Below are positions 29,361 through 56,002 of a stretch of DNA of 64,000 nt, one piece after another. The stretch spans positions 1-64,000 of the forward strand of contig NCEA01000021.1 of NCBI GenBank assembly GCA_002280515.1. The letters are read 5' to 3'. Made by a program: the position numbers and the translations under genes. Under the pieces are notes generated by a model, which saw only the letters and a list, made by a program, of their open reading frames with translations, ran no database searches and had not been told where the DNA came from. The stretch's first letter is position 1. Every line of letters starts with the position of its first letter. Source of the DNA: Rhodobacterales bacterium 32-67-9 (lineage in GTDB: Bacteria; Pseudomonadota; Alphaproteobacteria; Rhodobacterales; Rhodobacteraceae).

Positions 29361-29368
29361 GGATCCCG

Positions 29369-30577: not shown

Positions 30578-30580
30578 GAT

Positions 30581-30616
30581 CTTCTGTTCGAAAATACCTC
30601 CGCCGGAGGCTCCCGG
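30581..30616 (-). repeat. dispersed palindromic repeat, copy 4 (left arm of inverted pair)
   Basis: CTTCTGTTCGAAAATA then CCTCCGCCGGAGGCTCCCGG. With copy 5 at 30629-30664 it forms an inverted pair of about 30 bp arms that could fold into a long hairpin between gcdH and the E1 gene. Confidence 0.75.
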
Positions 30617-30628
30617 CCCCGCCGTCAG

Positions 30629-30664
30629 ACGCCTCCGGCGGAGGTATTTGGAAACAGAAGAAAG
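30629..30664 (+). repeat. dispersed palindromic repeat, copy 5 (right arm of inverted pair)
   Basis: ACGCCTCCGGCGGAGGTATT then TGGAAACAGAAGAAAG, the inverse of copies 3 and 4. It ends 15 bases before the start of the E1 gene, so the hairpin may influence transcript stability or read-through there. Confidence 0.75.
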
Positions 30665-30679
30665 CCGGGTGAGAGAGAC

Positions 30680-40550: not shown

Positions 40551-40581
40551 GCCGGAATGTCTTTCTGGATGGGGAGCGCCT

Positions 40582-40616
40582 GAAAGAAACACCCCCCGCA
40601 TAAGCGGCGGGGGGGT
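40582..40616 (-). terminator. intrinsic terminator of the Liv operon
   Basis: On the minus strand CACCCCCC...GGGGGGTG forms a strong stem with a GCCGCTTATGC-type loop (40590-40616), followed by TTTCTTTC (40582-40589), 30 bases after the binding-protein stop. Confidence 0.8.
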
Positions 40617-40645
40617 GCGGTAGACACTAGCTAGGGAGCGGTTGG

Positions 40646-41866
40646 TTACTTGAAGGCGCTGGCGGGGTAGAACTTCACGTTCTCCCACTTGCCGTCCTTG
40701 GCCTGCTGGATCGAATAGGCGCCGTCTGGCGTTCCGCTTTCATCGAACGCGAGCGGGCCGGAGGCGCCTTCGTAGTTGATATCCTTGCCGCCGGCGATCG
40801 CCTCCTTGCCTGCTACGAAACTGCCAACAGCCTCACCACCGTCGGCGACGGCGCGGATCACGCTGTTGATCCCCTCGCCCGTGCAGCTGTCCGCGCTTTC
40901 AAGCGACAACGCGATCAGGTTCGCCATGTCGAACGAGTTCGCCGCGAAGGGGCCCGGCTCGCCGCCCTTCTTCTCCTGGTAGAGCGCATCGAACGCCATG
41001 TATTCCGGCAGCGAATTGTCGGCGTCCGCAAATTCGACATAGGCCCGGTCATTCAGGTATTGTGCGCCGACCGCATCGAAGATCTCGGGCACCGCCAGGT
41101 CAGCGGTGAAGAGCCATTCGCCCTCGAACCCGCCAGACGTCGCCTCCTTGATGACGGTCACGCCGGATTCCTGTCCGCCCGCCAGATAGATCGCGTCAGG
41201 TTCATTTGCCAGGACCGCGACCAGCTCGGCCTGATAGGAAGGCTGGCCGGGGTTGTAGACAACATAGTCCGTCAGTTCGATACCGGAGGCTTCCAGCTTC
41301 TCACGCGCGACCTGGGCCGGCGAGATCGTGGATTCCTCGTTCTGCACCATGAGGGCCACCCGCTTGTAGCCCTTGTCGGTCAGCCACAGGCCCGAGGCCG
41401 CCCCATCGCCAAGGTCGGAGGATACCGTCCGGTAAACATAATCGCCGCCGAGTTCGTTCAGGGTGATGGTCCCGGCATAGGGCGACATGATCACCGTCTT
41501 GGTCCGCTTGGCGAGGTCGACCAGCGCCACCATCACGCCCGAAGTCGGGCCGACGACGGCGACCGCCCCATCGGATTCGATCATTTTCGTCGCTTCGCGA
41601 ATGCCGACCTCCGGATCCCCCCCGGTGTCTGCGACCACGGTGCGCAGGTTGCCGCATTTGGTGCCGCCGGCGGCGTTGACCTCGGCCACGCCAAGCTCGA
41701 CCGCACCGGCGACGATCTTGCCGAATTCGCCAAGCTCACCGGTCAAGGGGACGAGAACCCCGATGGTCACATCCTCGGCCCGCGCCGCGACTGTCGAGGC
41801 CGCGAAGGCCCCGGCAAGCAGGGTGGATTTCAGAAGGGCACCCTTGATAGACACTGTAGTCTTCAT
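40646..41866 (-). CDS. branched-chain-type ABC transporter substrate-binding protein
   Basis: 406-residue periplasmic binding protein of the LivK/AmiC fold. The signal peptide MKTTVSIKG... has a hydrophobic core LLAGAFAAST and likely cleavage after ARA near residue 30. VTIGVLVPLTGELGEFG, AVVGPTSGVMVAL, and RVALMVQNEESTISPAQ are family landmarks. Two cysteines (near 72 and 323) may form a disulfide. It is the last gene of a livH-livM-livG-livF unit and is followed by a strong terminator. Given the catabolic genes next door, the ligand is likely their substrate rather than leucine. Confidence 0.88.
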   Translation of the reverse strand: MKTTVSIKGALLKSTLLAGAFAASTVAARAEDVTIGVLVPLTGELGEFGKIVAGAVELGVAEVNAAGGTKCGNLRTVVADTGGDPEVGIREATKMIESDGAVAVVGPTSGVMVALVDLAKRTKTVIMSPYAGTITLNELGGDYVYRTVSSDLGDGAASGLWLTDKGYKRVALMVQNEESTISPAQVAREKLEASGIELTDYVVYNPGQPSYQAELVAVLANEPDAIYLAGGQESGVTVIKEATSGGFEGEWLFTADLAVPEIFDAVGAQYLNDRAYVEFADADNSLPEYMAFDALYQEKKGGEPGPFAANSFDMANLIALSLESADSCTGEGINSVIRAVADGGEAVGSFVAGKEAIAGGKDINYEGASGPLAFDESGTPDGAYSIQQAKDGKWENVKFYPASAFK

Positions 41867-41886
41867 TTCACTTCTCCCTGTTATCG

Positions 41887-42594
41887 TCAGTTATGGACTT
41901 GAAGCAGAACCTCTTCGAGCCGGCCCGGTTCGAGTAGGCTTCTTGCCGCGACCGTGTCGGAGTTGCGGCCCGCGTCGATCACATAGGCAGTGCCTGAAAT
42001 GGCCAGGATCTTCTCGGGGTTCTGTTCGACAACCCAGATCACGCCCATGCCGTCCTGGACCAGTTCCCGCACCCAGGAGACGATCCGGTCGACGAAGATC
42101 GGGGCTAGGCCCGCCGTAGGCTCATCGAGGATCAGCAAGTCCGGGCCGGCGACAAGGGCTAACGCGATGGAAAGGGTCTGGCGTTCACCGCCCGAGAGCG
42201 TGGACGCAAGCTGGTTCGAACGCTCTGCGAGGATGGGGAAGCGCCGGAGCACCTCGTCGATGCGTTCCCCCGCCCCCTCGAAGGCGAGGGCGGAAGCCGA
42301 GAGGTTATCGCGCACCGTCAGTTCGGAAAAGACATTGCGTTCCTGCGGGACATAGGCGATGCCCTCCTTGCAGATGGACAGGGCGGTATGCCCGACGAGC
42401 GAATTTCCGCGATAGCGGATTTCGCCCGCCATCACCGGCAGGTGCCCAGCAATGGTTTTCATAAGCGTGCTTTTTCCCGCGCCGTTCGGGCCGAGGACGG
42501 CGGTGATCTCCCCCGCCGGGGCGATCAGGTCGATCCCGTGCAGGATCTGGACCTTGCCGTACCCGGATTTCAGCCCCTTGACCTCAAGCTGCAT
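41887..42594 (-). CDS. ABC transporter ATP-binding protein (LivF type)
   Basis: 235-residue ATPase: Walker A GPNGAGKST near residue 35, the LivF-type YVPQERNVFSELTV, signature LSGGERQTLSIALAL and Walker B LLILDEPTAGLAP. The start MQLEVKGLKSGYG at 42594 overlaps livG by 11 bp. The long upstream frame to 43038 is the antisense-like shadow inside livG. Confidence 0.9.
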   Translation of the reverse strand: MQLEVKGLKSGYGKVQILHGIDLIAPAGEITAVLGPNGAGKSTLMKTIAGHLPVMAGEIRYRGNSLVGHTALSICKEGIAYVPQERNVFSELTVRDNLSASALAFEGAGERIDEVLRRFPILAERSNQLASTLSGGERQTLSIALALVAGPDLLILDEPTAGLAPIFVDRIVSWVRELVQDGMGVIWVVEQNPEKILAISGTAYVIDAGRNSDTVAARSLLEPGRLEEVLLQVHN

Positions 42595-43357
42595 GATCGG
42601 CCCCCAGATAGGCCGCGATGACCTTCTCATCCGACTTGATTTCGCCGGGCGTGCCGTTCGACAGCAGTTCCCCGTTCTGAAGGACGACGACGGAATCGGC
42701 GATCTGCAACAGGAAGTGGAGGTTGTGTTCGACCACCACCAATGTGCGGCCCTCTCCGTGCAGATCGACGAGGAAGCGGCTGAGTTTCGCCTGGAGACTG
42801 GGATCGACCCCGGCGGTCGGCTCGTCCAGCAGCAGGATCTTTGGGTCGCGCACAAGCTGGCGCGCCACTTCGAGCATTCTGAGTTCGCCCCCCGACAGAT
42901 TGGCGACGACGTCATTGATACGCTCGGTGAGGCCGACTCGCTCCAGCACCTCTTTGGCCTTGTCGCGCAAGGCACGTTCGCGCGGCCGCCAGCTGCCGCG
43001 AAAGACTGAAAGAAGTGTCTCGCCCTCGTTGTCCGCACCCACCATGACGTTCTCCAGAACCGTCAGCGATGGAAACGCCCGCGGGGTCTGGAAGGTCCGG
43101 CCAAGTCCGAAAGACGCGATGTCCGAAGCGCGGGCGGTCGACAGATCCTTGCCGTCAAGGATCACCGACCCCGAGGTCGGTTTCAGAACGCCGGAGATCA
43201 GGTTGAAGGTCGTCGACTTGCCGGCCCCATTCGGTCCGATCAGCCCGAGGAACGTCCCTTCAGGGACAGAAAAGCTTAGGCCTGCGTCGCCGCCGACGGC
43301 CTTAAGACCGCCAAAACGTTTGGTGACCTTGTCGACGACGAGAAGATCGCGCGTCAT
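42584..43357 (-). CDS. ABC transporter ATP-binding protein (LivG type)
   Basis: 257-residue ATPase: VTKRFGGLKAVGG at the start, Walker A GPNGAGKST near 41, GLGRTFQTPRAFPSLTVLEN as expected for LivG, signature LSGGELRMLEVARQL, Walker B LLLDEPTAGVDP. The start overlaps the livM stop (ATGA). It partners with LivF to power the importer. Confidence 0.9.
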   Translation of the reverse strand: MTRDLLVVDKVTKRFGGLKAVGGDAGLSFSVPEGTFLGLIGPNGAGKSTTFNLISGVLKPTSGSVILDGKDLSTARASDIASFGLGRTFQTPRAFPSLTVLENVMVGADNEGETLLSVFRGSWRPRERALRDKAKEVLERVGLTERINDVVANLSGGELRMLEVARQLVRDPKILLLDEPTAGVDPSLQAKLSRFLVDLHGEGRTLVVVEHNLHFLLQIADSVVVLQNGELLSNGTPGEIKSDEKVIAAYLGADHAA

Positions 43358-44283
43358 GCCGGTTGCCTCCGTCTTGCGAAGGCGGCGAAGGGCTGCCAGC
43401 GCAGGATCACGATAAAGAGGATGCCGGTCACGATATCCTCGGCAGAGGCGGCGATTTCCGCCGCCCGCACGGATTCGAACGGGATGGCGCGGATGGCCTC
43501 CTGGAACCCGACAAGCGCCATCGTTCCGACAACCGCGCCGAGGATCGTGCGTTCGCCGCCGAGAACCAGCGCGATCCAGACGAAGAACGTAACTTCGGCA
43601 GAGAAGAGGTTGGGGTTCACCAGCGTGGTGATCATCGCATAAAGCGCGCCGGCGAACCCGATCGGGATCGAGGACAGGACGAAGACTTGGAACCGCAACC
43701 GGGCGATGTCCTTGCCGATCGCCTGAGCGGCCACCTCGTCATCCCGGACCGCATCGATCGCCCGGCCATAGGGCGAGGCCAGAAGGCGGCTGAACGCATA
43801 GGCCGTCGCCAGCATCAGCAGAAACGCCGCACCCGCATAGACGATGTTTTCGGACAGCCCCAGAATGTTGGCATCCGGCCGCTCGACATTCGCGAGGCCC
43901 ACGGTTCCGTTGCCGATCCGGCGTTCGTTGACCAGAAGCGAGCTCAGCATTTCGGCGAAGGCGAAAGTCGTCAGGGCAAGGTATTCGCCGCGCAGCCGCA
44001 GCGTCGGCCAGCCGGTCAGGATCGCGAAGGCCATGGCGGCAATTCCGGCGGCGATGAACCCGGCCCACCAGGGCGCGTCCAGCCCGACGAGGTACTGGTC
44101 GAGACCATGCGGCGGTTCCTGCGTGACGATCGCATAGGCATAGGCGCCGGCCGCGAAATAGGCGACGGTGCCGAAATTGATCATGCCGCCCCGGGCATAC
44201 TGCAGGTTCAGCGACAGCGTCAGGACCGAAAAGAGGCTGCCGAACATGACGATGGTCAGGGCGGTCTGGGCAAGGGTATTCAT
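43354..44283 (-). CDS. ABC transporter permease (LivM type)
   Basis: 309-residue membrane permease with about nine hydrophobic segments. TLSLNLQYARGGMINFG near residue 22, TLRLRGEYLALTTFAF near 91, and RAIDAVRDDEVAAQAIGKDIARL split as AIDAVRDDEVAAQAIG (the EAA-like loop near 176) are typical of LivM. Its start overlaps the livH stop. Confidence 0.9.
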   Translation of the reverse strand: MNTLAQTALTIVMFGSLFSVLTLSLNLQYARGGMINFGTVAYFAAGAYAYAIVTQEPPHGLDQYLVGLDAPWWAGFIAAGIAAMAFAILTGWPTLRLRGEYLALTTFAFAEMLSSLLVNERRIGNGTVGLANVERPDANILGLSENIVYAGAAFLLMLATAYAFSRLLASPYGRAIDAVRDDEVAAQAIGKDIARLRFQVFVLSSIPIGFAGALYAMITTLVNPNLFSAEVTFFVWIALVLGGERTILGAVVGTMALVGFQEAIRAIPFESVRAAEIAASAEDIVTGILFIVILRWQPFAAFARRRQPA

Positions 44284-45143
44284 GAGCTTCTTTTCATCGA
44301 CAGGCCCTCGGGGCGCACCAGGAGTGCGATGATGACGACGGCGAATGCGATCAGGGGGCGATAGCCCGCCGGTATCCAGAAGACCGAGACATCCATGGCA
44401 ATCCCGACGATCAGCCCGGCGGCGATCACGCTGTAGAGCGACCCCAGGCCGGCAAGGATCGCAACGGCGAGGATCTGGAGGATCTGGTGAAAGGCGATAT
44501 CCGTCGACAGCGTCGCGATCAGAGCGAGCATGACACCGGCAAGACCGGCGAGGCCCGAGGACAGAAGCCAGGTCGCGCGCGAGGTCTGGCGCACATCAAT
44601 GCCGCGCGACGCCGCAAGCTCGGGGTTCGTCGACATGGCGCGGATCGCAAGTCCGGTCTTGGTGCGGTTGAGGAAAAGCGCCAGAGAGATGCCAGTCAAC
44701 GCGGCAAGCGCGACCACGATCATCTGGTAGTTGGTGATCCTGAGGCCGAAGAACTTGTAGGTAGTCGCAAGCGGAACGTCGAGCGTCCGGATCCCCGTGC
44801 CGATGATCGCGTGCATGATACCGGCGATCACAAGGGCCACCCCGACCGAGGATATCAGCACCACGGCCGGTCCGAGTTTCCGGATCGGATCGTAGACGAC
44901 GCGCCCGATGAACAAGCCAACGAACGCGGTCGCGACGATGGCGACCACGGCGGCCGGAATGAACGGCCAGCCGGCTGCCGCGTTCAGCCCCCAGGTGATG
45001 AAGGCAGAGACGCCCAGCATCTCGGCATGTGCGATGTTGAGGAACCCCTCGACCTGCCGCGTCAGCGAGAACCCGATTGTCGCGAGGATCAGAAAGCACC
45101 CGGTCACCACTCCGGTCAGGGCGTATTGCGCCAGTAGGTTCAA
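44280..45143 (-). CDS. ABC transporter permease (LivH type)
   Basis: 287-residue membrane permease, first gene of the Liv unit. LTRQVEGFLNIAHAEMLGV near residue 27 is the LivH signature region, and GLAIRAMSTNPELAASRGID near 165 the cytoplasmic coupling loop. The promoter region upstream carries operator site A (45247-45273) of the MarR-associated palindrome family. Confidence 0.9.
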   Translation of the reverse strand: MNLLAQYALTGVVTGCFLILATIGFSLTRQVEGFLNIAHAEMLGVSAFITWGLNAAAGWPFIPAAVVAIVATAFVGLFIGRVVYDPIRKLGPAVVLISSVGVALVIAGIMHAIIGTGIRTLDVPLATTYKFFGLRITNYQMIVVALAALTGISLALFLNRTKTGLAIRAMSTNPELAASRGIDVRQTSRATWLLSSGLAGLAGVMLALIATLSTDIAFHQILQILAVAILAGLGSLYSVIAAGLIVGIAMDVSVFWIPAGYRPLIAFAVVIIALLVRPEGLSMKRSS

Positions 45144-45246
45144 TCGGTTCTCCCTCGGTCCCGCAGGGCATTGCCCTACTGGTGTCTGTTGGTGTCGCGA
45201 CCCGCTCCACTGTCCGGCCGGGGCCGGTTCGGGGGGTGCGATCAGC

Positions 45247-45273
45247 TTTATATACGAAGTATGCTCCTCTTTC
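45247..45273 (-). promoter_or_regulatory. palindromic operator site A, upstream of livH
   Basis: Minus strand reads GAGGAGCATACTTCGTATATAA: the shared palindrome (one base off consensus AAGGAGTATACTTCCT) directly followed by a TATATA-like -10 box, about 110 bases before livH. It lies between the MarR gene and livH. Confidence 0.65.
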
Positions 45274-45372
45274 GTGCAAACGCAACGATTTTCTTGCGCA
45301 GCCGAATTGCCTCACCCTGGAAAGGTTTGGTGGCGTCGCGCGATCAACAGGGGCGTGATTGCGGAATCGGCG

Positions 45373-45879
45373 TCAGATCGTTCCCATCGGGGCGCGGCTC
45401 GCCTCGTTGTTGGCATCGACCAGCTTGTTGATCAGGCGGAAGAATTCCTCGCGCTCATCATCGTCGAGGGGGGCGATCAGCCGGTCCTGGGCCCTGACCA
45501 TCCGCGGTCGGACCCGCTTGATGTAGGCTTTGCCCGCTTCCGTGATCTTCACGATCTTCGCACGCCGGTCGAATTCCGACGGTATCCTGGTCAAGAGCCC
45601 GCGCCGTTCAAGCCGCCGGATGACATCGGCACCGCTGGTCCGGTCGATTCCAACCGAGGTCGACAGCGTCAGCTGATCCATCTCCTCACCGCCTTGCAGG
45701 ACGGACAGGATCGCCGACTGGACCGGGGTAAGATCCTCGCTGCCACACTCCTCCGCGAAGAGGCCCACATGGATTTGGTGCAGGCGCCGGATCAGGTATC
45801 CCGGCCGGGTCCAAAGTTCTTCATAGGTCCGGCTTTTGACTTTTCCCGGCCGCGCCGCTTTCTTAGATGTGTTTTCCAT
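45373..45879 (-). CDS. MarR-family transcriptional regulator
   Basis: 168-residue winged-helix regulator. LTPVQSAILSVLQGGEEMDQ near residue 55, the recognition region TSVGIDRTSGADVIRRLERR near 78, and the wing LLTRIPSEFDRRAKIVKIT show the MarR pattern. The N-terminal 20 residues are basic (TSKKAARPGKVKSR). It sits between the Liv importer and the molybdenum hydroxylase, with copies of one palindrome at its own promoter and at the other units of the region, so it is the likely regulator of all of them. MarR proteins are often inactivated by an aromatic or heterocyclic ligand. Start ATG 45879 fits homologue length; its ribosome site is weak. Confidence 0.9.
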   Translation of the reverse strand: MENTSKKAARPGKVKSRTYEELWTRPGYLIRRLHQIHVGLFAEECGSEDLTPVQSAILSVLQGGEEMDQLTLSTSVGIDRTSGADVIRRLERRGLLTRIPSEFDRRAKIVKITEAGKAYIKRVRPRMVRAQDRLIAPLDDDEREEFFRLINKLVDANNEASRAPMGTI

Positions 45880-45997
45880 ATCCCTGATCACAGCTATGTT
45901 GCAGACTATAGATGCGTGCGGGTGGCGCTTGCACGTGCGACCCGCGCTTATTGCCCACTTTGACCATTCGAGACAAGCCCGGGCGTGGCTTGGGGTG

Positions 45998-46032
45998 TTG
46001 CATCGGAAATAATACACAGTATACTTCTTTTA
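45998..46032. promoter_or_regulatory. palindromic operator site B and divergent MarR / hydroxylase promoters
   Basis: Core CAGTATACTTCTT at 46017-46029. On the plus strand TTGCAT (45998-46003) and TATACT (46020-46025) with a 16-base spacer form a promoter for the hydroxylase gene, with its -10 inside the palindrome. On the minus strand the palindrome is followed by TATTAT, a -10 towards marR. The site can therefore control both directions. Confidence 0.6.
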
Positions 46033-46115
46033 TCGCCCAATCGCCATGGGTTCGGCAACGCCTTTGACGTTCGTGGTGCGATTGACGGCATGGCCGGCGC
46101 TGGAGGGAACAGGTC

Positions 46116-48461: not shown

Positions 48462-49288
48462 AGCCGTCTCCGTTCGAGATTTCACGCCCCGGAACATTGG
48501 ACGCAGCGCGCGAGGCGCTTCGCGACGAAGCCCATGGCACCAAAGTCATCAGTGGCGGCCAATCGCTCGGCCCGATGCTGAACCTGCGGCTTGCCCGGCC
48601 GTCGCGGTTGGTGGATGTGACCGGCTTGCCGGGCCTGGCCGAGATCCGCAAAACCGAAACCCATGTCGAGATTGGCGCGGCCGTCACCCATGCGCGCATC
48701 GAAGATGGCGAGGTGCCCGATCCGATACCGGGCATGTTGCGCCATGTTGCCGCTGGCATCGCCTATCGGGCCGTGCGCAATCGGGGCACCATCGGCGGCA
48801 GTCTCTGCCACGCCGATCCCGCCGCCGACTGGGTCACGGCGATGATCGCGCTCGACGCGGTGCTTGTGGTACGGGGCGGTGGCGGCGCACGGGAAATCCC
48901 TATGTCGGGCTTCATGCTCGGTGCCTACCGAACGGCAATGAAGGACGACGAGATCCTGACCACGGTGCGCATCCCGCGCTATTCGGATCAGGCGCGCTGG
49001 GGCTATTACAAGATCTGCCGCAAGGTGGGCGAATTCGCCGACGCGATAGCGGCCTTCGTCGCCGACCCGGAACGCCGCACCTGCCGGGTCGTCTTCGGAT
49101 CGACCAGCGGCGCGCCATTTGTCAGCACGGAGCTAGCCCGGCAAATCGCGACGACCGGTGCCGCCGTGCCACTTGACGCGGTGAAGTCGGTGCTGCGGGA
49201 CAGCGGCCTCAACCTCTCGGAGGTCAAGATCCATCAACTTGCCATCGCCCATTCCCGCGCCGTGACAGAGGCCCTTTCGGATGCCTGA
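48458..49288 (+). CDS. molybdenum hydroxylase FAD subunit (CoxM family)
   Basis: 276-residue FAD-binding medium subunit that takes electrons from the [2Fe-2S] clusters. KVISGGQSLGPMLNLRLARP near residue 29 and RNRGTIGGSLCHADPAADW near 108 are the two FAD-binding loops of the family. It overlaps the large subunit by 4 bp and the small subunit by 8 bp, giving order L-M-S. Confidence 0.92.
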   Translation: MKPSPFEISRPGTLDAAREALRDEAHGTKVISGGQSLGPMLNLRLARPSRLVDVTGLPGLAEIRKTETHVEIGAAVTHARIEDGEVPDPIPGMLRHVAAGIAYRAVRNRGTIGGSLCHADPAADWVTAMIALDAVLVVRGGGGAREIPMSGFMLGAYRTAMKDDEILTTVRIPRYSDQARWGYYKICRKVGEFADAIAAFVADPERRTCRVVFGSTSGAPFVSTELARQIATTGAAVPLDAVKSVLRDSGLNLSEVKIHQLAIAHSRAVTEALSDA

Positions 49289-50399
49289 GACACTCATTCT
49301 GACCGTCAATGGCGAGGCCTGCACCGTCACTGTCGCGCCCCGCACCCAACTGGCCGAGGTGCTGCGCGACCATCTCGACCTGACGGGAACCCATCTTGGG
49401 TGCGAGCAAGGCGTCTGCGGCGCGTGCACGGTTATCATGAACGGCAAGCCGGTGCGGTCCTGCATCACCTATGCCCATACCTGCGATGGTGCAGTGATCG
49501 AGACGATCGAGGGGCATCGCGGTGACCCGGTCATGGATCAGCTGCGAGATGCCTTCTCGCGTCACCACGCGCTGCAATGCGGCTTCTGCACGCCGGGGAT
49601 GCTGGCCACCGCGCATGACATCGTAACACGCTTCGATGCGGCGGACGAAGCAACGATCCGGCATGAGCTGAGCGGCAACCTCTGCCGCTGCACCGGCTAT
49701 GTCGGCATCGTCGGTGCGATCTCCGAGGTGATCGCGGCGAAGGGTGCGACTTCCGCTCCCCCTGCCCCGCTACGCAACGTAAAGCCCTTCACGCCGTTCG
49801 ATCCCGTCGAAGCCGCTGCGGTGCCAGCCGCGTCGGCAGCCCCAAAGGGCTCCGTTTCAACGGATGGTGGCTGGACCGTCGTCAAGCGCAGCTTCGCCCT
49901 CAATCATGCGCCGGACGCGGTCTGGGCGCTCTTCCGAGACCCCGCGCGCGTGGCCCCCTGCATCCCCGGTGCTACGGTCGACAGCCTTGACGCTGAAAAC
50001 TTCTCTGGTGCCGTGGAAATCCGCTTCGGCCCGATCCGGGCGCGCTTCGGCGGGCGCGGCACCTATGCCAACGACGACAACGCCCGCGCTGGGTCGATCC
50101 GCGGCGAAGGCAACGACAAGCTCGGCAAGTCGACGGTCAGGGGCGAGCTGCGCTATGCCATCGCGGCAGGGACAAACCCTCAGACGAGCCGGGCCGAGGT
50201 GGAGCTTCGCTTCGAGATCGACGGGATGCTGGCGCAGTTCAACCGGCCGGAGCTTGTCACCGGCTTTGTCAACTACATCCTCGCCCAGTTCGCGGCGAAC
50301 TGCGATGCGGTCCTGTCGGGCGGCGAGGCCGGCCCGGCGAAGCGGCTGAGTGTCTTCGCGATGCTCTGGGCCGTCCTGAAGGCGCGCTTCTCGCGCTGA
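49281..50399 (+). CDS. fusion of hydroxylase [2Fe-2S] subunit (CoxS) with CoxG-like SRPBCC domain
   Basis: 372-residue two-part protein. Residues 1-155 are a complete CoxS subunit: plant-type [2Fe-2S] cysteines 41, 46, 49 and 61, then the four-helix cluster domain with QCGFCTPGM and LCRCTGY. A proline/alanine-rich linker (about 158-195) leads to an SRPBCC/CoxG domain from about 197 (VVKRSFALNHAPDAVWALFRDP ... IPGATVDSL) ending in a short hydrophobic-basic tail LSVFAMLWAVLKARFSR. CoxG is normally a separate protein that anchors or matures CO-dehydrogenase-type enzymes, so here it is physically tethered to the electron-transfer subunit. It ends 15 bp from the convergent reductase gene. Confidence 0.88.
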   Translation: MPETLILTVNGEACTVTVAPRTQLAEVLRDHLDLTGTHLGCEQGVCGACTVIMNGKPVRSCITYAHTCDGAVIETIEGHRGDPVMDQLRDAFSRHHALQCGFCTPGMLATAHDIVTRFDAADEATIRHELSGNLCRCTGYVGIVGAISEVIAAKGATSAPPAPLRNVKPFTPFDPVEAAAVPAASAAPKGSVSTDGGWTVVKRSFALNHAPDAVWALFRDPARVAPCIPGATVDSLDAENFSGAVEIRFGPIRARFGGRGTYANDDNARAGSIRGEGNDKLGKSTVRGELRYAIAAGTNPQTSRAEVELRFEIDGMLAQFNRPELVTGFVNYILAQFAANCDAVLSGGEAGPAKRLSVFAMLWAVLKARFSR

Positions 50400-50414
50400 C
50401 CGGCGCTTGCCCGG

Positions 50415-51224
50415 TCAGTCGACGAAGGCGCGTTCGACGACGTATTCGCCGGGCTTGCTGTTCGCCCCTTCGGTGAAACCCCGCGCTTCGAGAATGCGCT
50501 TCATGTCGAGGTTCAGCGCCATCGATCCGCAGATCATCACGCGGTCATAGGCCGGATCGAGTGCGGGGACCCCGAGATCCTCGAACAGCTTGCCGCTTTC
50601 GATCAGGTCGGTGACGCGGCCCATCCTCTCGGAGGTCTCTCGCGTCGTGGAAGCGTAGCGCCGGAACTTGACGGCTGCCTCCTCGCCCACCAGCGGGTCC
50701 TCGGCAAGCCGCCGTTCCAGATCGTCGCCGTAGTCGAGCTCACTCCTCAACCGGCATGTCTGGGTCAGGATGACGCTTTCGAATTTCTCATAGGTCTCGG
50801 GCTCCCGCATCAGGCTGGCGAAGGGCGCGACGCCGGTGCCGGTCGAGATCATCCAGAGCCGTTTGCCCGGCAACAGCGCGTCGATGACAAGTGTACCGGT
50901 CGGCTTGGTCTTGACGATCACCTGATCGCCCACCTCGATCTTCTGAAGACGCGAGGTCAACGGTCCGTCGGGCACCTTGATCGAGTAGAACTCAAGCTCC
51001 TCGTCCCAGAATGGCGAGGCGATGGAATAGGCGCGCAGGATCGGTTTGCCGTTCTCGCCCGGCAGGCCGATCATCACGAACTCGCCCGAGCGGAAGCGGA
51101 AGCTCGCGGGCCGGGTGACGCGGACGGAGAACAGGCGATCGTCCCAGTGCCGGACACTCAGGACGGTCTGGGCGTCTGGCATGGTCTGGGCGGGCGCTGC
51201 GGCCGGCTTGGGGGCGACGTTCAT
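50415..51224 (-). CDS. fpr: ferredoxin--NADP+ reductase
   Basis: 269-residue FAD enzyme of the bacterial FPR type. The FAD motif RAYSIASP is near residue 65, GTGVAPFASLMREPE near 130 binds nucleotide, MICGSMALN near 230, and the C-terminus YVVERAFVD is typical of the bacterial subclass. It is transcribed with the ferredoxin gene 47 bp upstream, so the two likely form a short electron chain from NADPH, either to the PreA-like reductase or from the hydroxylase. Confidence 0.93.
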   Translation of the reverse strand: MNVAPKPAAAPAQTMPDAQTVLSVRHWDDRLFSVRVTRPASFRFRSGEFVMIGLPGENGKPILRAYSIASPFWDEELEFYSIKVPDGPLTSRLQKIEVGDQVIVKTKPTGTLVIDALLPGKRLWMISTGTGVAPFASLMREPETYEKFESVILTQTCRLRSELDYGDDLERRLAEDPLVGEEAAVKFRRYASTTRETSERMGRVTDLIESGKLFEDLGVPALDPAYDRVMICGSMALNLDMKRILEARGFTEGANSKPGEYVVERAFVD

Positions 51225-51271
51225 GGGTGGTCTCCGGTTCGGGGTATGATGGCGCCGTCGGGCGCGGGCGA

Positions 51272-51796
51272 TCAGTTGTTCACGCGCAGCCCGTCCACCT
51301 CGAAGCCGTCAGACTCTTCGGTGTCGAGCGGGTCCAGTCTGACCATCTTTGCCGGGTCCTTGGCCTCGGGGAAGGGAACGGTGGCGCCGTCGACCTCGTA
51401 GTGTTCGACGGCGGCATCGCCGGGCATTTCGCCAGGTTCATAGATCGGCTTTTGCGCATGGGGTTCGGCCGGCGCCGCGCCGGTGATCAACAGCCCCGCC
51501 TTGCCGGGCTTGCCGTTCCATTCCTCGGCATCGGGCGGAACCCTCCCTATCTCGGTGATGTTCGGCCAGATGTCGGCGTATTTGGCGTTGATCGCGAGCC
51601 AGGGCTCAAGCCCCGGTTCTGTATCAGCCCGGATCGCGTCGGCCGGGCATTCGGGTTCGCAGACGCCGCAGTCGATGCATTCCTCGGGGTGAATGACCAG
51701 AAAGTTCTCGCCCTCGTAGAAACAATCCACCGGGCAGACTGTGACGCAGTCCTGGTACTTGCAGTTAATGCAGTTCTCCGTGACGACATAGGTCAT
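51272..51796 (-). CDS. fdxA: 7Fe ferredoxin (FdxA type) with long C-terminal extension
   Basis: 174-residue ferredoxin; FdxA proteins usually have about 106-113. The cluster region is complete: cysteines 9, 12, 17, 21, 25, 40, 43, 46 and 50 ([28 protein letters not shown]) would hold [3Fe-4S] and [4Fe-4S]. After residue 105 there is an acidic, proline-rich tail of about 70 residues ([32 protein letters not shown]) that I do not recognise. The gene lies downstream of operator site C and upstream of fpr. Confidence 0.9.
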
Positions 51797-51810
51797 GATT
51801 CACCTCTCAT

Positions 51811-51834
51811 TTATAGGAAGTATACTCCTTAAAA
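51811..51834 (-). promoter_or_regulatory. palindromic operator site C, upstream of fdxA-fpr
   Basis: Core AGGAAGTATACTCCTT at 51815-51830; minus strand TTAAGGAGTATACTTCCTATA. The TATAAA -10-like box directly follows the palindrome, 20 bases before the fdxA ATG. It is the closest match to the consensus of the four sites. Confidence 0.7.
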
Positions 51835-51850
51835 TTGGAGAAGGCAAACC

Positions 51851-52549
51851 CTATCCAAGAATCGGCACCGGTAGGACGTCATAGGCGTGGGAGATCCGGC
51901 GCTTCAGCACCGGGTCGATCAGTTCGAGCGCGAAGCGCGGGCTGAACCTGACACCACCGATCGCGCCACAGGTGCCGCCGAACATCAGCGTGTGTTCGGC
52001 CAGTTCGCCTCCGTCTTCCTTCAGGTGGGTCAGCAGTTCCGCGGGAGAAAGAAGCCCCGCCACCCCGCCATCCTGGTAGACGACATCCTCGCCGCCTTCG
52101 CGGATGGTGGACCGGATGAGGATCTGGTCCCAGTGCCCCTCGACCTCGTCGAGCGGCCAGAATTCGGTGGCGATCGGCTTGTCGCAAAGTTGCTTGGCGA
52201 CGGTGATCCCCATGTGCTCGACCACCCGGTCGGTGTGGTCCGAGCCGGCGCCGACCCAAATCCGGCCCTTGCGGTTCAAGAGCACATACTCGACCTCGCC
52301 GCTCGACCCGTCGCCGATCACCTCGATCGCGTCGGCCACCGAAAGGCGCGACACCCCGACGCGGTAGAACAGCGGGGTTTTCGCGGGCGGCTTCACGCCG
52401 ATCTTCGCAAGCTCGTCGATATGATGCTGAAGTGCCGCCTTGTCGCGGCCGGTCCAGCCGCCGACGATCACCTTTTCGATGACGACCCTTTCCAGCTCCT
52501 GCCCGGAGCGGGAGGTGAAGGTTGCGTCGAATTCGACCCTGGCAGACAT
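51851..52549 (-). CDS. DUF2848 family protein
   Basis: 232-residue protein matching the DUF2848 pattern: VIVGGWTGRDKAALQHHI near residue 27, TPLFYRVGVSRLS near 58, WVGAGSDHTDRVVEHMGITV near 98 and AKQLCDKPIATEFWPLDEV. The fold is reminiscent of fumarylacetoacetate-hydrolase-like proteins (GGTCGAIGGVRFSPRFALELIDP near the C-terminus). Function is not established. It is the last gene of the preA-cupin-amidase unit, so it probably acts late in that pathway, perhaps as a hydrolase or decarboxylase of an acyclic product. Confidence 0.78.
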   Translation of the reverse strand: MSARVEFDATFTSRSGQELERVVIEKVIVGGWTGRDKAALQHHIDELAKIGVKPPAKTPLFYRVGVSRLSVADAIEVIGDGSSGEVEYVLLNRKGRIWVGAGSDHTDRVVEHMGITVAKQLCDKPIATEFWPLDEVEGHWDQILIRSTIREGGEDVVYQDGGVAGLLSPAELLTHLKEDGGELAEHTLMFGGTCGAIGGVRFSPRFALELIDPVLKRRISHAYDVLPVPILG

Positions 52550-52564
52550 GATGTGACCTTTCGG

Positions 52565-53911
52565 TTAACGGCCCCGGATGGTGCCTTCCAATCCTCGTGC
52601 GATAGACAGCAGATGTCTGTCCCCACCTGTCCGCCCCATCAGCATCGCGCCGACCGGCAGCCCGCCTTCTTCATGGCAAGGGATGGAGATTGCCGGCAGG
52701 TCGAGGAAATTACCGACCGCGGTATTGCGCAGGCACAGCAGGTTCGTCGCCGCGGATTTCGCCGGGTCCGCGAGGCTTTCCATCGTCGGTGCCACGATCT
52801 GCACGGTAGGCAGAATCAGCGCGTCGAAGGCTTCGGTCTTGCGGGCTACGAGCGCGCGTATCCGCGCGCGCGCCTCGACCGTGCGGATGTAGTCGTCCGC
52901 GCTTTGCGACCGGCCCGCGCTGAAGCGTTCCCGGACCCAGGGATCATAGAATTCCGACCGCGTCTCGAGGTACGACTTGTGCCAGGAATAGGCTTCGGCC
53001 CCGACGAGGCCGCCCTTGCTGTTGATCTTCGGAAGTTCGGCAAGCTCTGCGATCGTGAGCGGCATCAGGCGCACGCCCCGGTTCGACAGGCGGGTCAGCA
53101 TCTTCTGGTATGCCGAGCCGACCGCTTCATCCAGATGCTCGGTGACATAGCCGTCAAGCACAGCAAGGCGCAGCCCGCCTTCGGGGAAGGAGTCCACATC
53201 CTCCCCTGTCCCGCCGGAAAGGATGGAATCGAGAACCGCGCAGTCGGAGACCGAATTCGCGAAGGGGCCGATGCAGTCGAGCGATTTTGACAGCGGCACG
53301 GTGCCGTCCTTCGGCACCCGCGTCGATGTCGGCTTGAATCCGACCACGCCGCAGAAGGCCGCCGGGATGCGGCACGACCCGCCGGTATCGGTCCCGATCG
53401 CGGCAGGCACCATCCCCTCGGCCACGGCTACGGCCGCGCCGGAGGAGGAGCCGCCGGGGATGCGATGCGCCGTCTTGTCGTGCGGATTGCGGGGCGTTCC
53501 AAAATGCGCGTTGATGCCAAGCCCGGAATAGGCGAACTCGGTCATGTTGTTCTTGCCGACGATCACGAAACCGGCCGCGCGCAGGCGCTGCACGATCACG
53601 GCGTCCGCCTCGGCCGCGGCCTGTTCGTCCAGAACGCGCGACCCGGCCGTCGTGACTTCGCCCTTGACGTCGAAGAGATCCTTGATCGCCAGCGGCACCC
53701 CGGCAAAGGGCGGCAGCGCGATGCCCTTGGCGCGGGCTGCGTCGATCCAGTCGGCCTGCGCCATTGCGGCCTCGGCATAGGTGCGCAGGAACACAACGCA
53801 GCCCTGCCCTGCCGGATCGGCGATGCGGGCCAGCGTCTCCTGCACGAGGTCGGCGCTTTTCAGGGTGCCCTTGATCAGCTTGCGCGAAAGGTCGGTCAGA
53901 TTCTGGATCAT
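52565..53911 (-). CDS. amidase signature family hydrolase
   Basis: 448-residue amidase with the Ser-cisSer-Lys triad region intact: the lysine in PLAIKDLFDVKG near residue 78, the glycine/serine-rich GGSSSGAAVAVAEG near 150, and the nucleophile serine in GTDTGGSCRIPAAFCGVVG near 173. Fine substrate specificity cannot be read. It is cotranscribed with the cupin and PreA-like genes, so a linear or cyclic amide from ring reduction is a reasonable substrate. ATG 53911 (MIQNLTDLS) is chosen; the frame to 54061 enters the cupin gene. Confidence 0.88.
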   Translation of the reverse strand: MIQNLTDLSRKLIKGTLKSADLVQETLARIADPAGQGCVVFLRTYAEAAMAQADWIDAARAKGIALPPFAGVPLAIKDLFDVKGEVTTAGSRVLDEQAAAEADAVIVQRLRAAGFVIVGKNNMTEFAYSGLGINAHFGTPRNPHDKTAHRIPGGSSSGAAVAVAEGMVPAAIGTDTGGSCRIPAAFCGVVGFKPTSTRVPKDGTVPLSKSLDCIGPFANSVSDCAVLDSILSGGTGEDVDSFPEGGLRLAVLDGYVTEHLDEAVGSAYQKMLTRLSNRGVRLMPLTIAELAELPKINSKGGLVGAEAYSWHKSYLETRSEFYDPWVRERFSAGRSQSADDYIRTVEARARIRALVARKTEAFDALILPTVQIVAPTMESLADPAKSAATNLLCLRNTAVGNFLDLPAISIPCHEEGGLPVGAMLMGRTGGDRHLLSIARGLEGTIRGR

Positions 53912-53970
53912 GTCCGGATATACCGCAAAGGAAGACCGCCCCGGCGGGGCGGTCTGGATAAAGGCATGGA

Positions 53971-54348
53971 TTACTGCGGGTCGTAGTAGTGCTGCTCCAG
54001 CAGCAGGCAGCCTTCCTCGGTGCGGAAGGGACCATGCGCGACATGCGGCGGGCGGACGCAATAGGTGAACTTGCCGAAACGCTCGCCACCCTTAGGCCCG
54101 TCATTGCCGACCCACATGTCGCCCTCGATCACGAAGACCTCTTCCCAGTAGTCATGCTCGAACGGGACAGTGGTGTAGGTGCCCGGCTCGAACTTCAAGA
54201 GCCGCGTCCAGCCACCCTTGCGGTTCTCCATGTCGAGATGACCCGACAGAACCTTTTGCTTGATCCCGGACGGATAGCCCTTGGGCGTTACCCAGCCGCT
54301 GTCCATGTCGAGCTGGTAGAATTCGCGATGTTCCTTGTTGACGGCCAT
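53971..54348 (-). CDS. small cupin protein
   Basis: 125-residue single cupin domain with the conserved metal-ligand pattern VPFEHDYWEEVFVIEGD near residue 61 and PHVAHGPF near 102. It begins ten bases after the PreA-like gene and is separated from the amidase by 59 bp, in the same unit. Small cupins in such operons may be metal-dependent isomerases, dioxygenases or sensors; nothing here fixes which. Confidence 0.82.
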   Translation of the reverse strand: MAVNKEHREFYQLDMDSGWVTPKGYPSGIKQKVLSGHLDMENRKGGWTRLLKFEPGTYTTVPFEHDYWEEVFVIEGDMWVGNDGPKGGERFGKFTYCVRPPHVAHGPFRTEEGCLLLEQHYYDPQ

Positions 54349-54358
54349 GATCGTCTCC

Positions 54359-55699
54359 TTACTCGGCAGGTTCCTTGTTGAACTTCGGGCTGTTGGCGCG
54401 GATGGAGTACATGTTATTGCGCCGGGTCTTGAACTTGTCCTTCTCGTACACTTCCGCCGGGATGTTGAAGAAACCGGAGTCGAGCTGGGCGGGAGAGGTT
54501 TCCTTCATCTCGATCGAGTCGAACGGGCAGGCGTCCATGCACAGCTCGCAGCCGATGCAGTTGTCGGTATGCACCTCCACCGTGCCATCCGGTGTCTGCG
54601 ACAGAGCCTCGTAGAAGCAGACCTGGATGCAGATGTTGCAGGTCGGGTTCTTGCAGGTGTCATCATTGATCACTGCATGGATGCGGTTTTTCGAGAACTG
54701 TTCGGAATAGTCCTTCACCGACCGCTTCGAGGCAATGCCGATCATCTCGTCAACGGTTGCATAGCCGTTTTCATCCATGAACGTTTCGACGCCCTCGATG
54801 ATCTTCGGCAGCCACTTGATGCCCTTGACCATCAGGATCGAACCGACCTGAACGATGGTCGAACCCGCCATGATGAACTCGATCACGTCACGGTGGTCGA
54901 AGATCCCGTTCGAGCCGGAGATCGGCATCCCGAGCTCCTCGTGGATCCGGTGGACCCAGCGCAGCGAGAGGGGCTTGACCCAGGTGCCGCCGATCCCGGC
55001 GGGGCCGCCGATGCGGGGCTGGCCGGTGTCGATATCGACGACAAAGCCGGTATGGCGGTTGATCGCGGTCACACCGGCAGCGCCTGCCTCGCGCACCGCC
55101 TTGGCGATGGCAAGCGGCTTGGACTGATCCGGCGTCAGCTTGACCACGACCGGGATATCCACCGACTCGCAGACCTGGCGCGTGACCTCATAGGCCACCT
55201 CCGGCTCCTGCCCGATCATCGAACCGCCATGCACGCCCGGCATCATCGCCGGATGCGGGCAGCCGAAGTTCAGCTCGACCATTGGCAGACCGCAATCCTC
55301 GATCGTCCGGCAGATATCCTTCCAGCCGTTGATGTCCTTGGCGCCGGCGCTGCCGATCAGGTGCGCCCCTCGCTCCGCCGCGTATTTCTGGATTTCCTTC
55401 AGATCGGGAATCCAGTCCTTGTAATAGGTGCTGGAATAGCCCGAGCGGCTGTAGAAGACGAAGTCCCGCGCCGGCTTGCCACGGATGATGTCGCCTTTGG
55501 AGTTCATCACGCAGTACTTGGAGTTCTGCGTCAACCGGGCCATGTCCTCGATGTCGGTCAGCGTCTTGATGATCGCGCCGGAGGCTCCCCCGTCAAAGCA
55601 TTGACGCATCAGGTCGGGGCTGTTCGTGGTTTCCAGCGAGGCGATGATAACGGGGTTTTTGAACTTCACTCCGCAGAAGTCCACGCTCATGTCCGCCAT
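54359..55699 (-). CDS. PreA-like dihydropyrimidine dehydrogenase (dihydroorotate-dehydrogenase fold plus 2[4Fe-4S])
   Basis: 446-residue protein. Residues 1-325 form a flavin-binding barrel: FKNPVIIASLETTNS near 13, VELNFGCPHPAMMPGVHGG near 135 containing the active-site Cys region, and ISGSNGIFDHRDVIEFIMAGSTIVQVGS split as SGSNGIFDHRDV and AGSTIVQVGS. Residues 340-400 carry two [4Fe-4S] motifs (CKNPTCNICIQVC, CIGCELCMDACP). PreA with its NADH subunit PreT reduces uracil and thymine; no preT is here, but fdxA and fpr are. It probably reduces a pyrimidine-like or other N-heterocyclic ring. Start ATG 55699 has GGAGG six bases upstream. Confidence 0.88.
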   Translation of the reverse strand: MADMSVDFCGVKFKNPVIIASLETTNSPDLMRQCFDGGASGAIIKTLTDIEDMARLTQNSKYCVMNSKGDIIRGKPARDFVFYSRSGYSSTYYKDWIPDLKEIQKYAAERGAHLIGSAGAKDINGWKDICRTIEDCGLPMVELNFGCPHPAMMPGVHGGSMIGQEPEVAYEVTRQVCESVDIPVVVKLTPDQSKPLAIAKAVREAGAAGVTAINRHTGFVVDIDTGQPRIGGPAGIGGTWVKPLSLRWVHRIHEELGMPISGSNGIFDHRDVIEFIMAGSTIVQVGSILMVKGIKWLPKIIEGVETFMDENGYATVDEMIGIASKRSVKDYSEQFSKNRIHAVINDDTCKNPTCNICIQVCFYEALSQTPDGTVEVHTDNCIGCELCMDACPFDSIEMKETSPAQLDSGFFNIPAEVYEKDKFKTRRNNMYSIRANSPKFNKEPAE

Positions 55700-55936: not shown

Positions 55937-56002
55937 TGGAATGCACAACGTGACAACGGAGGTGAATTCATCGAGCATTCGGCATTCATAGGGAGGATAC
56001 CA

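What the first reader, a model, noticed from the sequence alone, without database searches (positions are those of the whole stretch)
40646..55699. Candidate undescribed catabolic island: import, Mo-hydroxylation, ferredoxin-dependent ring reduction and amide hydrolysis
A Liv-type importer, XDH-family hydroxylase, PreA-like reductase, amidase, DUF2848, cupin, 7Fe ferredoxin and ferredoxin-NADP reductase are grouped under one operator family. The logic (hydroxylate, reduce the ring, open an amide) resembles the fermentative nicotinate route (nicotinate hydroxylase, 6-hydroxynicotinate reductase, enamidase) and reductive pyrimidine degradation, but the enzyme set differs from both: the reductase is PreA-like, the hydrolase is an amidase-signature enzyme, and DUF2848 and the cupin are uncharacterised. 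I know of no described pathway with exactly this set.
Basis: partly seen in the sequence, partly recalled or inferred. Interest (0 to 1): 0.78.

Follow-up and report, generated by a model that had tools for sequence, protein, structure and literature searches.

The report
Reductive N-heterocycle catabolic regulon
A self-contained set of bacterial genes, under its own genetic switch, appears to import a nitrogen-ring acid, oxidise it, reduce the ring and cut it open, most likely feeding it into central metabolism by a route I could not find described.

Summary
Window 39642-55699 is a compact catabolic regulon of a Defluviimonas-like rhodobacter: Liv importer, MarR regulator, three-subunit Mo-hydroxylase (closest solved structure quinoline 2-oxidoreductase), PreA-like reductase, 7Fe ferredoxin, FPR-type reductase, amidase, DUF2848, cupin. 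PreA-like, amidase, DUF2848, cupin and ferredoxin stay together in 13 of 23 related loci. An AGTATACT operator lies at four island promoters; its strict form (three of them) occurs nowhere else in the assembly.

Additions: (1) in the nine other informative loci HyuA (hydantoinase/oxoprolinase) stands beside PreA instead of the amidase, so the intermediate is probably a cyclic amide; (2) the reductase is not canonical PreA: catalytic Cys kept, Arg at the Thr737 position in 26 of 26 sequences, and the genome has a separate pyrimidine set; (3) in four relatives a glutaryl-CoA-dehydrogenase-like gene and a 2-oxoacid-dehydrogenase E1 run divergent from PreA, and a TPP enzyme lies inside another cluster. 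I therefore propose picolinate-type acid -> 6-hydroxy acid -> dihydro-lactam -> 2-oxoadipate -> glutaryl-CoA. The substrate is inferred; nicotinate is the main named rival.

The parts
39642..40688 (-). EamA/DMT permease, syntenic edge of the island
   Evidence: Pfam EamA 1.7e-19; homologue at the same place in D. denitrificans, 79%
40646..41866 (-). Liv-type substrate-binding protein
   Evidence: Pfam Peripla_BP_6 4.2e-42; closest solved chains are Leu/Ile/Val-type binding proteins, best 3.4e-17
41887..42594 (-). LivF ATPase
   Evidence: Pfam ABC_tran; NCBIfam UrtE/LivF-like, below cut-offs
42584..43357 (-). LivG ATPase
   Evidence: Pfam ABC_tran + BCA_ABC_TP_C
43354..44283 (-). LivM permease
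   Evidence: Pfam BPD_transp_2 1.6e-40
44280..45143 (-). LivH permease
   Evidence: Pfam BPD_transp_2 9.2e-32
45258..45271 (.). operator site 1 (Liv promoter)
   Evidence: not matched by the strict pattern
45373..45879 (-). MarR-family regulator
   Evidence: Pfam HTH_27/MarR_2; a MarR homologue lies in 18 of the 25 stretches tabulated
46018..46031 (.). operator site 2 (MarR/MoL divergent promoter)
46116..48461 (+). Mo-hydroxylase large subunit
   Evidence: MoCoBD_1/2, Ald_Xan_dh_C; best solved match quinoline 2-oxidoreductase 1t3q, 1.9e-146, ahead of CO dehydrogenase; PYRGVAR and GVGEGA motifs, no AYRC motif
48458..49288 (+). Mo-hydroxylase FAD subunit
   Evidence: FAD_binding_5 3.2e-48
49281..50399 (+). 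Mo-hydroxylase 2x[2Fe-2S] subunit fused to a CoxG domain
   Evidence: Fer2_2, Fer2 and COXG on one chain
50415..51224 (-). FPR-type NADPH:ferredoxin reductase
   Evidence: best solved match 2bgi, 7.6e-117; second genomic copy at 64%
51272..51796 (-). 7Fe (FdI-type) ferredoxin
   Evidence: best match 1frh; 1axq (7-Fe ferredoxin I) 1.9e-39; DUF3470; both Cys motifs present
51819..51830 (.). operator site 3 (upstream of the ferredoxin)
51851..52549 (-). DUF2848; proposed FAH-superfamily tautomerase or hydrolase
   Evidence: PF11010 2.1e-73; 2 of 13 aligned members match FAA_hydrolase below its cut-off; HxxE, GExE and SDHTDR invariant in 13 of 13
52565..53911 (-). amidase-signature hydrolase (proposed lactam hydrolase)
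   Evidence: PF01425 1.2e-94; PRK07056 amidase subfamily over cut-off; GGSSSG and GTDTGGSCR motifs
53971..54348 (-). Cupin_7 protein
   Evidence: PF12973 2.2e-9, over cut-off
54359..55699 (-). PreA-like reductase: DHO_dh barrel plus two [4Fe-4S] motifs
   Evidence: PF01180 and Fer4_21; NCBIfam PreA 239.6 bits against cut-off 335; residues
55756..55769 (.). operator site 4 (PreA promoter)
28128..35399 (+). possible downstream module elsewhere in the window, no operator site found: aminotransferase, GcdH-like acyl-CoA dehydrogenase, 2-oxoacid dehydrogenase E1, FabD-like protein, L-piperidine-6-carboxylate dehydrogenase
   Evidence: homologues of its GcdH-like, E1 and FabD-like genes run divergent from PreA in L007, L009, L010, L011; aldehyde dehydrogenase over the NF050084 cut-off

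Best explanation
A MarR-controlled catabolic regulon for an aromatic N-heterocyclic carboxylate, most likely a pyridine-2-carboxylate such as picolinate. Proposed steps: the Liv transporter imports the acid; the Mo-hydroxylase adds oxygen from water at the carbon next to the ring N (6-hydroxypicolinate, a cyclic amide as its tautomer) and may pass electrons to the membrane through its fused CoxG domain; the PreA-like enzyme, fed by NADPH -> FPR-type reductase -> 7Fe ferredoxin instead of PreT, reduces the C=C next to the amide carbonyl; the amidase hydrolyses the lactam; DUF2848 and the cupin help turn the resulting 2-enamine into 2-oxoadipate and ammonium; E1 and glutaryl-CoA dehydrogenase carry 2-oxoadipate to crotonyl-CoA. 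Shown: gene content, conservation, operator-like sites, a different ring-opening enzyme in the same place in another lineage, change of the uracil-contact residues. Inferred: each reaction, the electron path, binding of MarR to the sites, and above all the substrate.
For: Amidase, DUF2848, cupin and Fd occur together in 13 of 23 PreA-like loci and HyuA in 9 others, never both; L013 (3.3 kb) shows neither (HyuA/B families). Mo-hydroxylase nearest quinoline 2-oxidoreductase. PreA-like: DPD Cys671 equivalent in 26 of 26, Asn736 equivalent in 25 of 26 (Ser in L042), Arg at the Thr737 position in 26 of 26, and a second invariant Arg in FYSRSGYSS; the genome's canonical PreA keeps the DPD residues in its alignment and lies near D-hydantoinase/dihydropyrimidinase and carbamoylase-family genes. 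GcdH-like, E1 and FabD-like genes run divergent from PreA in L007, L009, L010 and L011 (in L011 with a LysR gene between), partial GcdH in L008; operator-like sites lie in or next to the PreA/GcdH intervals of L007, L009, L010. 3-hydroxybutyryl-CoA dehydrogenase over cut-off in L010; ETF-type genes in L009, L010, L012; TPP enzyme between DUF2848 and Fd in L015. All 5 PreA-positive family genomes (one of them with a 48% homologue) have E1, against 91 of 295 overall. Operator-like site upstream of HyuA in L024.
Against: No substrate evidence. The GcdH/E1 genes look like a lysine-type module in this family, and lie beside PreA in only 4 of the 9 amidase-type loci with more than 4 kb upstream; it may be a single event (tree, weakly resolved), and in L011 a LysR gene like that of the lysine module separates them. 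In G010, G064 and G228 E1 is on another contig than PreA; in the window it is 21.5 kb away without an operator site. L024 (18.8 kb seen) has PreA-like without Mo-hydroxylase, and G998 has none above 40% identity. HyuA-type loci show no DUF2848 or cupin. hhalign of DUF2848 against one FAH protein was negative (probability 0.3%). The GcdH-like protein is under every curated cut-off shown. No operator site found in L015-L023.
Confidence: 0.46

Rival explanations
1. Nicotinate version: Mo-hydroxylase makes 6-hydroxynicotinate, PreA-like makes 1,4,5,6-tetrahydro-6-oxonicotinate, the amidase opens it to 2-formylglutarate, which is decarboxylated and oxidised to glutarate and glutaryl-CoA as recalled for Azorhizobium.
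For: Same chemistry; an aerobic reductive nicotinate route with a putative ABC transporter is described for Azorhizobium and Bradyrhizobiaceae (PMC3511419, passages); a glutaryl-CoA dehydrogenase beside PreA would fit.
Against: That route uses a homologue of E. barkeri 6-hydroxynicotinate reductase and, in E. barkeri, an enamidase; no amidohydrolase match among the island genes scanned. A 2-oxoacid dehydrogenase E1 and a TPP enzyme beside the cluster are not needed; no glutarate-activating gene was seen among the few neighbours scanned.
Confidence: 0.17
2. Another N-heterocycle: unsubstituted pyridine, isonicotinate, an N-methylated acid such as homarine, or a five-membered ring, with the same hydroxylate-reduce-open logic.
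For: The enzymes do not fix the substrate; cupin-amidase-DUF2848 also occurs with an HpaB-like flavin monooxygenase (L028, L030), which suggests a related but different ring.
Against: Invariant arginines and a Liv importer suggest a carboxylate; GcdH/E1 linkage suggests a C6 2-oxo diacid.
Confidence: 0.2
3. A variant reductive pyrimidine pathway.
For: PreA is the nearest named family.
Against: Own genome has a separate canonical PreA with GltD-like, D-hydantoinase-family and carbamoylase-family genes; uracil-contact residues changed; no dihydropyrimidinase among the island genes scanned.
Confidence: 0.04
4. The genes are neighbours without one shared pathway (two or more small pathways in one island).
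For: PreA-like occurs in G998 without the other genes in the 20 kb around it; DUF2848 with amidase and/or cupin occurs on plasmids without PreA.
Against: Genes kept together in 13 loci and shared operator-like sites in the promoters of the sub-operons.
Confidence: 0.08

Closest known systems
Reductive nicotinate pathway (Eubacterium barkeri; aerobic in Azorhizobium caulinodans and Bradyrhizobiaceae)
   Same: Mo-hydroxylation, partial ring reduction, hydrolytic C-N opening; putative ABC importer; aerobic alphaproteobacteria (PMC3511419 passages; PMC9304392 passages)
   Different: Reductase there is a 6-hydroxynicotinate reductase homologue and, in E. barkeri, the opener a bifunctional enamidase; here PreA-like and an amidase or HyuA/HyuB
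pic pathway for picolinate (Alcaligenes faecalis, Bordetella)
   Same: Picolinate dehydrogenase (picA1A2A3) giving 6-hydroxypicolinate, and a MarR regulator (PMC10142695 passages; the PicR title was seen in its reference list)
   Different: There a second hydroxylation, decarboxylation and oxidative ring cleavage follow; no such families among the island genes scanned
PreA/PreT dihydropyrimidine dehydrogenase
   Same: DHO_dh barrel plus two [4Fe-4S] motifs, catalytic Cys and (25 of 26) Asn kept
   Different: Below the PreA cut-off; uracil-contact residues changed; no PreT-type gene, a ferredoxin and FPR instead
Anaerobic purine/uric acid cluster with XdhD, YgfK, HyuA (recalled, not tested)
   Same: Mo-hydroxylase family plus PreA/GltD-type reductase plus hydantoinase
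   Different: Different subunit types, anaerobic, no amidase/DUF2848/cupin

Membership tests
NAD-dependent dihydropyrimidine dehydrogenase PreA | score above the NCBIfam PreA cut-off | tested here: not met
   239.6 against 335 bits
NAD-dependent dihydropyrimidine dehydrogenase PreA | uracil-contact residues Asn609, Glu611, Thr737 (pig DPD numbering; roles recalled) | tested here: not met
   Phe, Ser and Arg at the aligned positions (read by eye); Arg in 26 of 26 relatives; the first two positions lie in a poorly aligned stretch
NAD-dependent dihydropyrimidine dehydrogenase PreA | catalytic Cys671 | tested here: met
   Cys in 26 of 26
NAD-dependent dihydropyrimidine dehydrogenase PreA | PreT partner subunit adjacent | tested here: not met
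   no PreT/GltD-type match among the island genes scanned; ferredoxin and FPR instead
Reductive nicotinate pathway | 6-hydroxynicotinate reductase (Hnr) | not testable with these tools
   no Hnr sequence at hand
Reductive nicotinate pathway | enamidase of the amidohydrolase type (type recalled) | tested here: not met
   no amidohydrolase match in the island genes scanned
pic picolinate pathway | 6-hydroxypicolinate monooxygenase, 3,6-dihydroxypicolinate decarboxylase, 2,5-dihydroxypyridine dioxygenase | tested here: not met
   no such families in the island genes scanned; rest of the genome not searched
XDH-family N-heterocycle hydroxylase | large, FAD and 2x[2Fe-2S] subunits with the GxGE motif | tested here: met
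   that its substrate is an N-heterocycle is inferred from the nearest structure
FAH superfamily (for DUF2848) | HxxE dyad, ExE...D metal site, C-terminal Q-D...GT signature (roles recalled) | tested here: inconclusive
   motifs present and conserved; FAA_hydrolase match in 2 of 13, both under the cut-off; hhalign negative; fold not predicted
Amidase-signature family | Gly/Ser-rich signature with Ser-cisSer-Lys residues | tested here: met
   GGSSSG, GTDTGGSCR, KDLFD; PF01425

The most novel reading that the evidence does not exclude
An aerobic, ferredoxin-dependent reductive pathway for picolinate: a new PreA-type subfamily acts as 6-hydroxypicolinate reductase, a lactamase slot is filled by an amidase or HyuA/HyuB, DUF2848 is a divergent FAH-superfamily enzyme acting on the enamine/2-oxo acid, and the carbon leaves as 2-oxoadipate and glutaryl-CoA. 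The cupin-amidase-DUF2848 unit would then be a general opener of alpha-carboxy lactams, used with a flavin monooxygenase for five-membered rings (for example pyrrole-2-carboxylate to 2-oxoglutarate) and with hydroxylase plus reductase for six-membered rings.
Probability: 0.33. Interest if true: 0.78.

Novelty: new variant of a known kind. Interest (0 to 1): 0.64.

Why it matters
If right, it is another way for aerobic bacteria to break a pyridine ring by reduction instead of oxygenases, assigns a function to a PreA-like subfamily and to DUF2848 (no paper in the held library contains that word), and warns that a 'dihydropyrimidine dehydrogenase' label on this subfamily would mislead. It gives a directly testable substrate list and a single operator for regulon mapping.

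Tried and rejected
Considered and rejected: uracil/thymine route; CO dehydrogenase (no AYRC motif, nearest structure quinoline 2-oxidoreductase); the TRAP genes at 55814-58930 as part of the unit (no DctP hit shown in L002, L003, L005, L014, each with 10 kb beyond PreA). Palindromes near LivH other than the AGTATACT site were not pursued. PreA in plasmids: no match at 1e-60. Phylum sample: only the own genome among 398 at 1e-90; class sample 2 of 385.

Literature (titles and abstract starts in search listings unless passages are named): DUF2848 with amidase, 0 papers; DUF2848 alone, 0; six pathway terms, 3 papers, none on this set by title; homarine and operon, 3 papers, none on homarine catabolism by title; 6-hydroxynicotinate reductase with dihydropyrimidine dehydrogenase, 0; picolinate with 2-oxoadipate, 7, unrelated by title; reductive picolinate terms, 2; pyrrole-2-carboxylate terms, 0; nicotinate/enamidase terms, 3; PreA with picolin terms, 1, unrelated by title. 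A homarine operon (homABCDER) is recalled only; its genes could not be compared.

Weak points: the DUF2848 fold could not be predicted. L015 DUF2848 contains undetermined bases, so its C-terminus is unreliable. Gene calls in unannotated loci come from simple scripts of mine and included some wrong-frame calls; I relied on tblastn and Pfam. For the latter, and because the listed odds added up to more than I gave the general reading, I lowered the best explanation from 0.50 to 0.46, the 'other N-heterocycle' rival from 0.22 to 0.20 and the novel case from 0.35 to 0.33, and raised 'no shared pathway' from 0.07 to 0.08.

Full report
What is there. The window lies on contig C20 of a 3.7-Mb assembly in 60 contigs, 94% complete; the closest named relatives by PreA are Defluviimonas and other Rhodobacteraceae. 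Details added: the small Mo-hydroxylase subunit is fused to a CoxG domain; the ferredoxin matches 7-Fe ferredoxin I entries; the ferredoxin-NADP reductase is FPR-type, best 2bgi at 7.6e-117; the genome has one further match to each, at 64% (reductase) and 61% over residues 1-119 (ferredoxin).

One regulon. Four sites with an AGTATACT-like core lie in the promoters of LivH, MarR/MoL, the ferredoxin and PreA. The stricter pattern AGTATRCTYCYT gives four hits at three places in the whole assembly, all in the island, and none for the reversed control; the LivH site does not fit it. The patterns were made from these sites, so only their absence elsewhere is informative. Many relatives of the amidase type show sites at corresponding positions, and L024 has one just upstream of HyuA; L015-L023 have none under my limits. 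That the MarR protein binds them is inference.

Conservation. The scan for PreA relatives gave 25 loci, of which 23 (L002-L024) match over most of the protein at 66-97% identity; the other two (L025, L026) match only short segments and were left out of the counts. By the identity limits set in the script, 13 of the 23 carry amidase, DUF2848, cupin and Fd together (L002-L012, L014, L015); the FPR is in 12 of these 13 (not in L015) and in L017; 17 of 23 carry MoL, and L010 is cut before it; 9 (L016-L024) carry HyuA and none of the amidase set; L013 is too short to tell. Several HyuA-type stretches are short (L016, L018, L022), so absence there is weak. Their solute-binding genes are of the TRAP DctP type where scanned (L016; L021), not Liv. 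The island in D. denitrificans has the same gene set, and genes called beyond its two ends had no match in the window; those called beyond PreA in L003, L005 and L014 did not match one another (at 40% identity or more). The gene is rare: PreA at 1e-60 in 5 of 295 family genomes, 1 of 398 of a phylum sample and 2 of 385 of a class sample at 1e-90, own genome included each time.

Why a cyclic amide. In the betaproteobacterial loci and in L024 the gene next to PreA is hydantoinase/oxoprolinase (HyuA in L017; HyuA and HyuB in L024), with HyuB in L021; by tblastn HyuA is in 9 and HyuB in 6 of the 23. A different enzyme family beside the kept reductase is most simply explained by a lactam or similar cyclic amide. 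L042, with a 45-48% PreA homologue, has a carbon-nitrogen hydrolase and an FPR-type reductase (81%) beside it.

Why not uracil. The PreA-like protein scores 239.6 bits against the PreA cut-off of 335. In the alignment to pig dihydropyrimidine dehydrogenase the catalytic Cys671 is kept and Thr737 is Arg; Arg is found there in 26 of 26 sequences (window, L002-L024, L041, L042), and a second Arg in FYSRSGYSS is invariant. The residues' roles in DPD are recalled. In the MAFFT alignment the canonical sequence is shifted by three columns at this point, so for it I rely on the HMMER alignment, where Asn-Thr is kept. The genome has that canonical PreA on C49, near genes scoring over cut-off as D-hydantoinase/dihydropyrimidinase and as a hydantoinase/carbamoylase-family amidase, and a GltD-like gene under all cut-offs shown.

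Why 2-oxoadipate. In L007, L009, L010 and L011 the genes divergent from PreA encode a glutaryl-CoA-dehydrogenase-like protein, a fused 2-oxoacid dehydrogenase E1 and a FabD-like protein; in L011 a LysR homologue lies between them and PreA; L008 has part of the first gene. L010 has a 3-hydroxybutyryl-CoA dehydrogenase over its cut-off, and ETF-type genes occur in L009, L010 and L012. L015 has a TPP enzyme inside the cluster. Homologues of the three genes are in the window at 29357-33876, between an aminotransferase and an L-piperidine-6-carboxylate dehydrogenase over its cut-off, that is, a lysine/2-aminoadipate-type module. The acyl-CoA dehydrogenase itself is below every curated cut-off shown (its NCBIfam hit to glutaryl-CoA dehydrogenase Acd is 217.6 of 470 bits), so 'GcdH' rests on context and on my reading of the sequence; likewise that this E1 acts on 2-oxoadipate. 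I fetched 12 E1 regions, ten of them from family genomes without a PreA match: piperidine-6-carboxylate dehydrogenase is near E1 in 5 of 12, the aminotransferase in 3 of 12, GcdH in 6 of 12. Beside PreA in L007, L009 and L010 neither of the two lysine-specific genes was found by the same search, while GcdH, E1 and FabD-like are there, which fits release of nitrogen as ammonium. E1 is in 91 of 295 family genomes and in all 5 with PreA; in G227 (the same contig as L011) the two are 2.7 kb apart, in G000 21.5 kb, in the other three on different contigs. The linkage may be one event: a tree of five proteins puts L007, L008, L010 and L009, L011, L012 in one weakly supported group (37), and L012 lacks it in the 4.7 kb seen.

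DUF2848 and cupin. DUF2848 carries HxxE (43-46), GExE (84-87) and SDHTDR (103-108), invariant at the named letters in 13 of 13 members, and a C-terminal stretch like that of the FAH protein of L024 (by eye). Two of 13 members match FAA_hydrolase weakly (3.7e-4 and 0.013, both under the cut-off). Against this, a profile comparison with one FAH sequence was negative, and the search of solved structures gave only chance-level hits, two of five of them FAH enzymes. The cupin is Cupin_7, and homologues at 57-63% sit in three of the plasmid clusters.

A wider module. On plasmids of Thioclava and Caballeronia, cupin, amidase and DUF2848, with Liv genes nearby, follow a flavin reductase and a monooxygenase that is HpaB-like but under the HpaB cut-offs; in Sulfitobacter DUF2848 follows a hydantoinase B/oxoprolinase gene; in Phyllobacterium and Pantoea DUF2848 and amidase sit with an MFS transporter; in Bradyrhizobium DUF2848 and a cupin follow a flavin monooxygenase. 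I looked at 6 of the 52 plasmid records with a DUF2848 match. A five-membered ring would need no reductase; this is inference, and one search found no paper for it.

Literature. Passages of PMC3511419 say that 6-hydroxynicotinate reduction to tetrahydro-6-oxonicotinate is reported in E. barkeri and aerobic A. caulinodans, with an Hnr homologue at 42% in strain SG-6C. Passages of PMC9304392 describe the bifunctional enamidase. Passages of PMC10142695 describe the pic pathway. The searches listed in Tried and rejected found no paper describing this set, but the library lacks most subscription journals.

Verdict. Observation confirmed; logic supported by an independent ring-opening enzyme in another lineage; substrate inferred. 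I put the general hydroxylate-reduce-open reading at about 0.8 (best explanation plus the first two rivals), and picolinate-type specifically at about 0.4 within the best explanation.

Noticed in passing
27147-35399: LysR plus lysine/2-aminoadipate-type module (aminotransferase, GcdH-like, E1, FabD-like, L-piperidine-6-carboxylate dehydrogenase); a FabD-like gene recurs in it without obvious reason.
   Followed up: partly
55814-61705: TRAP DctP and DctM genes followed by a malonyl-CoA synthase over its cut-off: looks like a malonate uptake unit; its DctP was not seen beside the island in four relatives.
   Followed up: partly
35818-39645: Putative hydro-lyase (PRK05463, over cut-off) beside TRAP genes; the same pairing stands beside oxoprolinase and DUF2848 in Sulfitobacter L032.
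   Followed up: no
L021 3988-8171: Next to the betaproteobacterial PreA/HyuA unit: Mo-binding protein, SoxY, SoxZ and SoxA/TsdA-type cytochrome genes in a row; L022 and L023 show genes of similar sizes.
   Followed up: partly
L028 4148-8687; L030 2863-12100: Flavin reductase, HpaB-like monooxygenase, cupin, amidase, DUF2848 and Liv genes: a second pathway type using the same lower module.
   Followed up: partly
L042 6826-16450: 45-48% PreA homologue with a pyrogallol-hydroxytransferase-like Mo enzyme, Fe-S protein, TPP enzyme, carbon-nitrogen hydrolase and FPR-type reductase.
   Followed up: partly
L045 9534-16936: Beside the island in D. denitrificans: carbon-nitrogen hydrolase, DHDPS-family, Asp/Glu/hydantoin racemase and FMN oxidoreductase genes, perhaps another N-compound pathway.
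   Followed up: no
L007 481-4317: A second, distant Mo-hydroxylase set (27, 25 and 39% to MoL, MoM, MoS) just beyond the GcdH/E1 genes.
   Followed up: no
51272-51496: The 7Fe ferredoxin has about 70 residues after the FdI-like part, which the FdI matches do not cover.
   Followed up: no
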